A stretch of DNA of 50,043 nt from Brevinema andersonii (GTDB lineage: Bacteria > Spirochaetota > DYKD01): the NCBI GenBank assembly GCA_020722765.1, contig DYKD01000017.1:1-50043 (forward strand), read 5' to 3'. Of this stretch, positions 20,186-23,637 are shown in pieces. The notes under the pieces are model-generated. The model was not told where the DNA came from and did not search any database. It saw only the letters and a program-made list of their open reading frames with translations. Within the stretch, counting starts at the first letter, position 1. Each line of letters starts with the position of its first letter. A program made the position numbers and the translations under genes.

Positions 20186-22273
20186 ATGAAGGAGGCATTG
20201 AAAACCGATAAAAAATCGGTACGCAATATTGGCATAGTTGCGCATATCGATGCTGGTAAAACTACCACATCAGAACGTATCCTTTTTTACACTGGCAAGA
20301 CATATAAAGTAGGCGAGGTTCATGAAGGTAATACTGAAATGGACTGGATGGATCAGGAAAAAGAACGCGGTATTACCATAACCAGCGCAGCTACTGTCTG
20401 TCTTTGGAAAAAGCATAGGATCAACCTTATTGATACTCCTGGACATGTCGATTTCACTGCTGAAGTCGAACGTTCCTTGCGTGTTCTTGATGGTTGTGTT
20501 GTTGTGTTCTGTGGAGTTTCTGGTGTTGAACCACAATCTGAAAATGTTTGGTCTCAAGCTGATAAATATCATGTCCCGCGTCTGGCTTTTATCAATAAGA
20601 TGGACAGGATTGGTGCGGATTTTGACAGGGTTCTATCCATGATGCATGATCGCCTTTCAGGTAAGCATCTTCCGATTCAATATCCGATAGGTATTGAATC
20701 AGGATTTCAAGGTATAGTAGATCTTGTTGAAAATAAGGCTTATCTCTGGTCTAAAGAGAACTTTGGTTCTGAATTTTTTGAAGCTGAAATTCCAGAAGAA
20801 CTCCAGGATAAGGTGAAAAAAGCACGTTCTCATTTGATTGATTCCATTGTTGAATATGATGATGCGATGTTAGAGAAATACTTGAATGAACATTCACTGT
20901 CTGTTGATGAGATTAAAAGCCTTATTAGGAAGGGATGTCTGAATGACAAACTTGTTCCTGTTCTTTGTGGAAGTGCTTTTAAGAATGTCGGTGTCCAGAA
21001 ACTGCTGGACGGTGTTCTTGACTATTTACCTTCCCCTTTGGATGTAGAGAAGTTTGATGTCCTTTCAAAGGAAGATGGAAAAAAAGAACAGTGGGTGGCA
21101 TCAGATACCAAAAATGGTTTTATGGCTTTGGCTTTTAAAGTTGCTGCTGATCCGCATGTGGGTAAACTGGTATATTTAAAAGTCTATTCAGGTCAATTGA
21201 ATGTAGGTGATCAGCTCTATAATGTCAATAAGGACAAAAAGGAGAGGGTTACAAAAATCCTGCAGATGCATGCGAATAAACGTGAAGAAATTGATTCAGC
21301 TGAATATGGCGATATTATTGCGGTTGCAGGCCCTAAACAGACAATTACGGGCGAAACACTGACTGGGAAACGGAGTCCCTTTCTTTTAGAAACGATGATT
21401 TTCCCTACTCCTGTGATTTCTGTGGCTATTGAACCGAAAAGCAAGGCTGATGAAGAGAAGCTTTTTGAAACCTTGAATGTCTTATCTGAAGAAGACCCGA
21501 CATTCAAGATTGATAATAACAAGGAGACTGGGCAGACCATTATGTCTGGCATGGGCGAGTTGCACCTGGATATCTTGACAACAAGAATGATCAGGGAATT
21601 CAAGGTCAATGCAAATATTGGAAAACCGCAGGTTACGTATAAGGAATCCCTCGTTTCAGAATCAGACGGACATGGTCGTTATGAAAAGGATTTACAAGGA
21701 CATGGACAGTTTGGTGAAGTTCTTATAAGATTAAAACCAGGAAAAACACCAGGAACTGTTGGTTTTCGTTCCCTAGTATCTGATGATGTTATCCCGAAAC
21801 ACTTTGTTCGAAGTGTTGAGGAAGGTGTTAGGGATAGTCTTAAATCTGGCTCTTTAGCTGGTTATGAGATTATTACTGTTGATGTTGAACTTGTAGGTGG
21901 AAGTTATCATCCTACAGATTCATCTGATATTGCCTTTAGGATTGCTTCGAGTATGGCTGTTGATGATGCCTTAAAAAAGGCTAAATCAGTCTTGCTTGAA
22001 CCTATGATGACGACTGAAGTCATCGTTCCTGAAGAGTTTGTTGGAGAGGTCATTTCTGATTTAAATGCCAGACGATCAAGAATAACGGCCATTGCTGATT
22101 TTGTGGCAGGTCGCCAGAAAGTTGTAAAAGCAGATGTTCCGTTGTCTGAGATGTTCGGTTATTCAACGGTATTAAGATCCCTTTCGCAAGGACGTGCGAC
22201 TTATAGCATGCAGTTTGCCTGCTATAACAGGGTTTCGGATTCTGTTGAAAAACGTATTTTAGGTATTGGTTAA
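20186..22273 (+). CDS. fusA: Elongation factor G
   Basis: [36 protein letters not shown], canonical switch [13 protein letters not shown]. Confidence 0.97.
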
Positions 22274-22325
22274 GTGTTTACATATATTTCGAAAAAAAAA
22301 TTAAAAGCCCGTAAGGAGGAAGACG

Positions 22326-23552
22326 ATGGCAAAAGAAAAGTTTAACCGTTCAAAACCTCATGTTAATGTTGGTACGATCGGTCATATCAGCCATGGTAAG
22401 TCAACCTTGACTGCAGCGATCACAAAGGTCCTGTCCAAGAAAGGTTTGTCGGATTTCAAGTCCTATGCTGATGTTTCAGTATCTTCAGGTTCCAGAAAAA
22501 TGGATACCAAGGATCAGACAAAGAAGATCGTAACGATCTCAACGTCACATGTAGAGTACCAGTCTGATAAAAGGCATTATGCCCATATCGACTGCCCTGG
22601 ACATGCTGACTACATTAAAAACATGATTACTGGTGCGGCTCAGATGGATGGAGCCATCCTTGTTGTCGCAGCAGATGACTCTGTTATGCCCCAGACAAAG
22701 GAACATGTGCTTCTTGCTCGTCAGGTTGGTGTTCCAAGCATCGTGGTTTACCTGAACAAAGTTGATATTGTTGATGCTGACATGATTGAACTCGTAGAAT
22801 CTGAAATTCGTGATACTCTTAACAAATATGACTATCCTGGTGATAAGACTCCTATTATCCGTGGTTCAGCTTATAAGGCTCTTTATGAAGATGCACCTTC
22901 AGCAGAAGGAGCTGGTTCCATTGAAAAACTTATGGAAACACTCGATTCCTATATCCCAGAACCGGTTAGAGATATTGACAAGCCATTTTTAATGCCTATT
23001 GAGGATGTCTTTACAATTACTGGCCGTGGAACTGTAGCTACAGGTGCCATAACACGTGGTAAAGTAAAGCTCAATGATAAACTTGAAATAGTAGGTTTCC
23101 GTGAAACACGTGACACTGTTTGTACTGGTATTGAGATGTTCAAAAAAGAGATGGATGAAGGTGCAGCTGGCGATAACGTTGGATTGCTTCTACGTGGAAT
23201 GGAAAAGAAGGATGTCGAACGTGGAATGGTTTTGGCTGCCCCGAAATCTATTACTCCCCACAAGAAGTTTAAGGGACAGATATATGTTCTGACCAAGGAA
23301 GAAGGTGGTCGTCATACGCCATTCTTTAATAATTACCGTCCTCAGTTCTACATACGTACAACCGATGTGACTGGTTCTGTAACGCTTCCAGAGGGTGTTG
23401 AAATGGTTATGCCTGGCGACCATCTTGAAGGTGGAAAGACCCTTGTCGTTGAATTGATTAGCCCTGTTGCTTTGGAAAAAGGCCAGAAATTTGCTATCCG
23501 TGAAGGCGGTCGTACTGTTGCTTCTGGTTCAGTTGTTGATATTATCGAATAA
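22326..23552 (+). CDS. tuf: Elongation factor Tu with atypical P-loop and switch I
   Basis: [46 protein letters not shown]; canonical str-operon position. Confidence 0.97.
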
Positions 23553-23567
23553 TCACTACGAAATGAT

Positions 23568-23596
23568 AAAAAAGGGAACTTCATGTTCCCTTTTTT
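23568..23596 (+). terminator. Rho-independent terminator after tuf
   Basis: aaaaaagggaac-ttcat-gttccctttttt perfect stem followed by T-tract. Confidence 0.9.
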
Positions 23597-23637
23597 ATTG
23601 TTTTTTTTAATATTTTGTTATTTTTTTTATAAAAAAT

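What the first reader, a model, noticed from the sequence alone, without database searches (positions are those of the whole stretch)
22470..22538. EF-Tu with a rewritten switch I (effector) loop
Between SYAD and TISTSHVEY the translation reads [20 protein letters not shown]. Canonical EF-Tu has about 13 residues here ending in APEEKARGI. The segment is about 7 residues longer, lacks the EEKxRG motif and replaces the Gly before I/V-T-I with Ile, while the catalytic-region Thr (VTI) is kept. The rest of the protein is near-canonical, and this is the str-operon copy. From memory, Brachyspira EF-Tu also has an atypical insert here (ending TKILTIATSHVEY), so this may mark a wider, poorly described EF-Tu class with altered GTPase or ribosome/EF-Ts interaction.
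Basis: partly seen in the sequence, partly recalled or inferred. Interest (0 to 1): 0.8.

Follow-up and report, generated by a model that had tools for sequence, protein, structure and literature searches.

The report
EF-Tu with rebuilt GTP-sensing loops
The only EF-Tu found in this spirochaete-phylum genome has an unusually long, rewritten switch I loop and has also lost a P-loop aspartate described as universally conserved; both changes touch the GTP-hydrolysis site of one of biology's most conserved proteins, and the same pair of changes recurs in some planctomycetes.

Summary
Confirmed. The str-operon tuf (22326-23552, +; 408 aa) is the only EF-Tu found in the 92%-complete genome. Its switch I is rewritten: 24 residues from Tyr46 to Thr61 (E. 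coli numbering) against 16 in 122/122 canonical homologues, without PEExxRG and with Gly59 replaced. [quoted passage not shown] In the first 168-homologue alignment these were the only two columns conserved at 97% or more where the window deviates. Asp21 and Gly59 are the two protein ligands of the monovalent cation in translational GTPases.

A wider class with Gly59-less switch I (R-D-x-[ST]-K) exists in Brachyspira, other spirochaetes, Planctomycetota, Myxococcota, Elusimicrobiota, Omnitrophota, Acidobacteriota, Goldiibacteriota and phage contigs. It is mosaic relative to the rest of the protein (one clade rejected, p=0.0006). Asp21-to-Ser turned up only in Gly59-less EF-Tus: the window and 8 of 294 planctomycete-phylum genomes. 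The window is a third, longer form, not a strict member. Most likely it is a working EF-Tu with a rebuilt gamma-phosphate/cation site; the biochemistry is inference. Evasion of EF-Tu-targeting toxins is a live rival.

The parts
22326..23552 (+). tuf, EF-Tu, 408 aa plus stop
   Evidence: ORF; NCBIfam TIGR00485 EF-Tu equivalog 646 bits vs cut-off 522; Pfam G domain, D2, D3
22312..22319 (+). ribosome-binding site TAAGGAGG, 6 bases before the ATG
   Evidence: read directly from sequence
22380..22403 (+). P-loop (G1) GHISHGKS; canonical GHVDHGKT
   Evidence: comparison of 168 homologues
22389..22391 (+). Ser22 codon AGC, equivalent of E. coli Asp21
   Evidence: Asp in 168/168 homologues; only 1 of 296 genomes sampled in the phylum matches the non-Asp pattern
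22401..22403 (+). Ser26 codon TCA, equivalent of Thr25 (Mg2+ ligand; Ser also works in other GTPases)
   Evidence: Thr in 98.8% of homologues
22473..22532 (+). rewritten switch I segment [20 protein letters not shown] (residues 50-69), +8 residues, Gly59 replaced by Ile
22533..22535 (+). Thr70, equivalent of Thr61 (retained)
   Evidence: invariant column T70 in alignment A1
22590..22604 (+). switch II DCPGH with catalytic His93 (E. coli His84), retained
   Evidence: invariant columns D89-H93
20186..22273 (+). fusA (EF-G), str operon neighbour with canonical Asp P-loop and ERGITIT switch I
23571..23597 (+). GGGAAC-TTCAT-GTTCCC hairpin followed by T run, probable terminator after tuf
   Evidence: read directly from sequence

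Best explanation
This is the organism's working, single-copy EF-Tu, in which the two elements that hold the gamma-phosphate and the monovalent cation have been rebuilt together. SHOWN: switch I is replaced by an 8-residue-longer, Lys/Asp/Ser-rich loop without Gly59; P-loop Asp21 is Ser; His84, Thr61, the other G motifs, domains II and III, the sarcin-ricin loop and EF-Ts are normal. A wider group of EF-Tus in many phyla has lost Gly59, and Asp21 was found lost only in EF-Tus without the canonical switch I. INFERRED: the canonical K+ site (Asp21 side chain plus Gly59 carbonyl) is gone. Losing the switch I Gly may come first and make Asp21 dispensable; the acidic and basic residues of the new loop ([10 protein letters not shown]) may supply, in the GTP state, the charge that Asp21/K+ supply elsewhere. 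Hydrolysis on the ribosome would then rest on His84 positioned by the normal sarcin-ricin loop, and intrinsic GTPase would be less dependent on K+. The longer loop probably also changes contacts with the aa-tRNA acceptor stem and 16S h8/h14, which switch I touches in known structures (from memory).
For: Only EF-Tu in the genome, str operon, equivalog score far above cut-off. In 168 homologues the only columns of 97% or higher conservation where the window deviates are 21 and 25, so changes are focused, not decay. Asp21 and His84 are described as universally conserved and crucial for hydrolysis on the ribosome, with K+ bound by Asp21 (PMC5311926); the cation lies between the Asp side chain and the switch I Gly carbonyl (PMC9599734; PMC4342817). 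Coupling: the non-Asp21 pattern hits 1/296 Spirochaetota, 8/294 genomes of the planctomycete phylum and 1/284 of the Sorangium phylum; every gene behind the hits lacks the canonical switch I. In the planctomycete cases the loop motif is also changed, RDxSK to R-S-D-S-K. Five other translational GTPases of the genome keep P-loop Asp. The model folds as the GTP form (TM 0.86-0.87 to 1exm and 1eft).
Against: No biochemical data. The cation ligand at Gly59 is a backbone carbonyl, so replacing the glycine need not abolish binding. The predicted loop (residues 54-73) has pLDDT below 50, so no residue can be placed in the pocket. Asp21-to-Ser events may be few: three places in the careful tree, but one clade is not rejected (p 0.17 and 0.85). 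The Fisher test of the coupling (p=1.4e-4) ignores relatedness and uses Ser21 sequences fetched by pattern.
Confidence: 0.5

Rival explanations
1. Target-site evasion: switch I and Asp21 changed because toxins or proteases attack exactly these residues. E. coli Lit cleaves EF-Tu (at Gly59-Ile60, from memory), and the Salmonella Rhs effector TreTu ADP-ribosylates the EF-Tu P-loop (at Asp21, from memory). Enzyme function is merely tolerated, not redesigned.
For: Literature: Lit cleaves EF-Tu when triggered by a phage capsid peptide; TreTu ADP-ribosylates EF-Tu, with 'EF-Tu P-loop' in the title of the primary paper. The window lacks both residues. Phage contigs carry EF-Tus without Gly59. The loop is scattered across phyla independently of the rest of the protein.
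Against: No search for such attackers in this genome or its neighbours was made; the exact target residues were not read in an accessible paper. Many phage EF-Tus have the canonical loop.
Confidence: 0.22
2. Loop drift: the loop tolerates neutral change, and the window is simply a fast-evolving lineage with no functional change.
For: Long terminal branch (0.34-0.54) and an unresolved place in the tree.
Against: Canonical residues are 112/112 invariant and loop lengths fall into discrete values, mainly 16, 18 and 21; the same motif recurs nearly letter for letter in distant phyla. Outside these sites no strongly conserved column is broken.
Confidence: 0.15
3. A canonical second tuf exists but is missing from the assembly, and this copy is a specialised or decaying paralogue.
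For: Genome only 92% complete in 371 contigs. A degenerate EF-Tu paralogue with a broken P-loop exists in one genome of the Sorangium phylum (L232).
Against: This copy sits in the str operon with a strong ribosome-binding site and intact conserved core; spirochaete-phylum relatives nearly all have one tuf.
Confidence: 0.07
4. Sequencing or assembly error.
For: A single fragmented assembly; no close relative is held.
Against: Frame intact; Ser21 needs at least two base changes; codon usage of the segment matches the gene; the same Asp21-to-Ser and Gly59 loss occur together in other genomes.
Confidence: 0.03

Closest known systems
Canonical bacterial EF-Tu (TIGR00485; E. coli, Thermus)
   Same: Three domains, str operon, Thr61, His84, NKxD, single housekeeping copy; 60-69% identity to the canonical homologues listed
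   Different: Switch I 24 vs 16 residues without PEExxRG, Gly59 to Ile, Asp21 to Ser, Thr25 to Ser
Gly59-less EF-Tus with R-D-x-[ST]-K switch I (Brachyspira, planctomycetes, Sorangium, Elusimicrobia, Goldiibacteriota)
   Same: Switch I longer than canonical, Gly59 and PEExxRG gone, Lys three before Thr61; best identity 71% to a Goldiibacteriota member
   Different: Window loop 3-6 residues longer, lacks A50, invariant K51 and the RD of the motif; Asp21 lost, while nearly all of these keep it
Planctomycete-phylum EF-Tus with GHISHGKT and R-S-D-S-K switch I (L222-L231)
   Same: Asp21 to Ser together with loss of Gly59
   Different: Loop 18-19 residues against 24, Thr25 kept; not grouped with the window in the careful tree, though one clade is not excluded
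eIF2gamma and EFG II
   Same: Translational GTPases reported to have lost the P-loop Asp (Ala in eIF2gamma, Gly in EFG II) and the conserved switch I cation residue (PMC4342817)
   Different: Different families; not the elongation factor that carries all aminoacyl-tRNAs

Membership tests
EF-Tu (TIGR00485) | Whole-protein score over curated cut-off | tested here: met
   646.4 bits vs 522.4
EF-Tu (TIGR00485) | G domain, domain II, domain III | tested here: met
   PF00009, PF03144, PF03143
EF-Tu (TIGR00485) | His84 in DCPGH, Thr61, NKxD | tested here: met
   invariant columns H93, T70, N144-K145-D147
EF-Tu (TIGR00485) | P-loop Asp21, described as universal | tested here: not met
   Ser; Asp in 168/168 homologues. 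Other EF-Tus without it exist, so it does not define the family
EF-Tu (TIGR00485) | Switch I D50..PEExxRG59 | tested here: not met
   112/112 in canonical homologues, absent here. The mark of canonical EF-Tus, not of the family as a whole
EF-Tu (TIGR00485) | aa-tRNA delivery with ribosome-stimulated GTPase | not testable with these tools
   needs biochemistry
Gly59-less R-D-x-[ST]-K switch I EF-Tus | No Gly at 59 and Y46-T61 longer than 16 | tested here: met
   Ile at 59; 24 residues
Gly59-less R-D-x-[ST]-K switch I EF-Tus | Motif R-D-x-[ST]-K-x-[LVI]-T-[IV] | tested here: not met
   pattern does not match the window; it reads [10 protein letters not shown]
Gly59-less R-D-x-[ST]-K switch I EF-Tus | A50 and K51 (55/56 and 56/56) | tested here: not met
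   S and V

The most novel reading that the evidence does not exclude
EF-Tu can dispense with the P-loop Asp21/Gly59 monovalent-cation site altogether: once switch I is swapped for a longer, charged loop, a residue of that loop (a Lys in place of the K+ ion, or a relocated Asp) does the job, giving a K+-independent EF-Tu with a different activation chemistry. The same loop has spread between phyla as a segment, independently of the rest of the gene.
Probability: 0.3. Interest if true: 0.82.

Novelty: new variant of a known kind. Interest (0 to 1): 0.62.

Why it matters
EF-Tu is a textbook conserved GTPase, and Asp21 is described as universal and essential for hydrolysis on the ribosome. Natural EF-Tus without it, in every case seen also without Gly59, make the long-argued roles of Asp21, the monovalent cation and switch I directly testable in working proteins. 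They also show that a class with no solved structure in the PDB serves many bacteria, including Brachyspira, and they are natural candidates for resistance to agents that attack EF-Tu at these residues.

Tried and rejected
Second canonical tuf in the genome: none found. General loss of P-loop Asp across the genome's translational GTPases: rejected, two EF-Gs, TypA, LepA and IF2 keep it; the EFG II-like protein lacks it, as reported for that family. Co-altered sarcin-ricin loop: rejected, AGTACGAGAGGACC present. Broken EF-Ts: rejected, an intact short EF-Ts lies in rpsB-tsf-pyrH-frr. Alternative switch I as one vertical clade: rejected (AU p=0.0006; 0% of 200 bootstrap trees). Structure-based placement of the loop: failed, pLDDT below 50. 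Published description of the class: none found in the open library. From memory, Jenkins and Fuerst 2001 (cited in PMC3444138) reported an 11-residue motif unique to planctomycete EF-Tu, which may be this segment; the paper was not readable here. Primary papers on the EF-Tu cation site, Asp21 mutants and TreTu were not held.

Full report
What is there. The window's tuf gene (22326-23552, + strand, 408 aa) lies in rpsL-rpsG-fusA-tuf-rpsJ order with a TAAGGAGG ribosome-binding site and a hairpin plus T-run after the stop. It scores 646 bits against the NCBIfam EF-Tu equivalog (cut-off 522) and holds all three Pfam domains. It is the only EF-Tu found in its genome, which is rated 92% complete. 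From Tyr46 to Thr61 (E. coli numbering) the window has 24 residues; 211 EF-Tus measured give 16 (122 of them), 18 (38), 19 (1), 21 (49) and 24 (the window alone).

The P-loop reads GHISHGKS instead of GHVDHGKT. In an alignment of 168 distinct homologues from many phyla the window deviates from a column conserved at 97% or more at only two places: Asp21 (168/168 Asp, here Ser) and Thr25 (98.8% Thr, here Ser). The Ser codon is AGC, at least two changes from GAY, and the switch I segment has the same codon usage as the rest of the gene. The protein is therefore not decaying; two neighbouring elements of the GTP site were changed.

Why these two belong together. Reviews describe Asp21 and His84 as universally conserved and crucial for hydrolysis on the ribosome, with a K+ ion bound by Asp21 (PMC5311926). 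The cation of translational GTPases is placed between the P-loop Asp side chain and the backbone carbonyl of the switch I Gly (PMC9599734; PMC4342817). That Gly is Gly59, which the window has as Ile. The window has lost both residues, a combination reported for eIF2gamma but for no EF-Tu in the papers found here.

The wider class. An alternative switch I with R-D-x-[ST]-K before x-[LV]-T-I replaces PEExxRG in many EF-Tus: Brachyspira and relatives, three other spirochaete-phylum families, Planctomycetota, Myxococcota, Elusimicrobiota, Omnitrophota, Acidobacteriota, Kiritimatiellota, a WOR-3 genome and Goldiibacteriota. In the spirochaete phylum the strict pattern hits 31 of 296 genomes in 7 genera, and 0 with the reversed control pattern; in the planctomycete phylum 32 of 99. 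Genomes with two tuf copies (Sorangium, Polyangium, Goldiibacteriota, Elusimicrobia) mostly have two equal-scoring ones. In the 56 alternative sequences compared, Gly59 is never Gly, D50 is Ala in 55 and K51 is invariant, while the canonical set is 112/112 for D50, P53, E54, E55 and G59. No chain in the PDB carries this loop. The window does not match the strict pattern and lacks A50-K51, so it is a third, longer form, not a member.

Mosaic history. Trees built without the switch I columns (and, in the later ones, without column 21) put alternative-loop EF-Tus beside canonical ones of their own phylum or family: G035 with G024, Verrucomicrobia, Omnitrophota, Goldiibacteriota, Acidobacteriota. 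Holding all alternative rows as one clade is rejected (AU p=0.0006). The loop thus has a different history from the rest of the protein: segment transfer or repeated convergence; I cannot tell which. The window's own place is unresolved (long branch).

Asp21 loss goes with Gly59 loss. A DNA pattern for non-Asp codons at position 21 (first base A, C or T) hits only the window among 296 spirochaete-phylum genomes, 8 of 294 in the planctomycete phylum (10 genes, all GH[IV]SHGKT) and 1 of 284 in the Sorangium phylum. All ten planctomycete genes have a Gly59-less loop in which R-D-x-S-K has become R-S-D-S-K or close to it. The Sorangium-phylum hit is a degenerate paralogue that also lacks the canonical loop. 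No canonical-loop EF-Tu without Asp21 was seen. Fisher's test on the aligned set gives p=1.4e-4, but that ignores relatedness and the Ser21 set was fetched by pattern. A careful tree puts the Ser21 proteins in three places, while an AU test does not reject one clade (p=0.17; p=0.85 on a larger quick tree). Independent origin is likely but not shown.

Partners. The 23S sarcin-ricin loop is canonical, EF-Ts is intact and short, and the other translational GTPases, except an EFG II-like protein, keep the P-loop Asp. The change is confined to EF-Tu. An AlphaFold2 model (pLDDT 84) takes the GTP-form domain arrangement (TM 0.86-0.87 to 1exm and 1eft), with residues 54-73 below 50, so it cannot show what fills the cation site.

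Reading. Shown: a single housekeeping EF-Tu with a rebuilt switch I and a lost Asp21, and coupling of the two losses in the samples searched. Inferred: the canonical monovalent-cation site is gone and the charged loop ([10 protein letters not shown]) takes over part of its work, with His84 and the normal sarcin-ricin loop driving hydrolysis. The main rival for the cause is selection by attackers: Lit cleaves EF-Tu and TreTu ADP-ribosylates the EF-Tu P-loop; the exact residues (Gly59-Ile60, Asp21) are from memory. EF-Tus without Gly59 on phage contigs up to 436 kb fit that rival too.

Novelty. The alternative loop may have been noticed in planctomycetes (Jenkins and Fuerst 2001, from memory; cited in PMC3444138). 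I found no description of it as a class spanning many phyla, of its mosaic history, or of EF-Tus without Asp21. I rate it a new variant of a known kind.

Noticed in passing
L199-L209, L214 (alternative loop); L210-L213, L215-L221 (canonical): IMG/VR contigs, several over 200 kb and up to 618 kb, encode EF-Tu; many have the Gly59-less loop (IAKGGTVRDENKTVTI), others the canonical one.
   Followed up: partly
L232 (G884): A degenerate EF-Tu paralogue in a Sorangium-phylum genome: P-loop GHIRHGKT, switch I SRGGQWRGPDLVIGCIPGYVEY, apparently without Thr61.
   Followed up: no
L006 (G000:C99): EFG II-like protein with P-loop GHSTTGKTT (no Asp), in line with the published note that EFG II lacks it.
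   Followed up: no
L007 (G000:C55): IF2 reads ESGAITQH, with Ala at the residue two before the switch I Thr where Gly is usual (from memory); it may bear on cation sites in this organism.
   Followed up: no
window 23410-23455: Small insertion in EF-Tu domain 3 ([17 protein letters not shown], 4 residues longer than the best PDB match).
   Followed up: no
G311:C89:7212-8396: Second tuf of an Elusimicrobiaceae genome carries an in-frame TAA, a pseudogene or sequencing error.
   Followed up: no
spirochaete, planctomycete and Sorangium phyla: The taxa with alternative EF-Tu overlap those reported to carry spdEFG1, an EF-G with its own 3-residue switch I insertion (PMC3150367). Possibly coincidence.
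   Followed up: no
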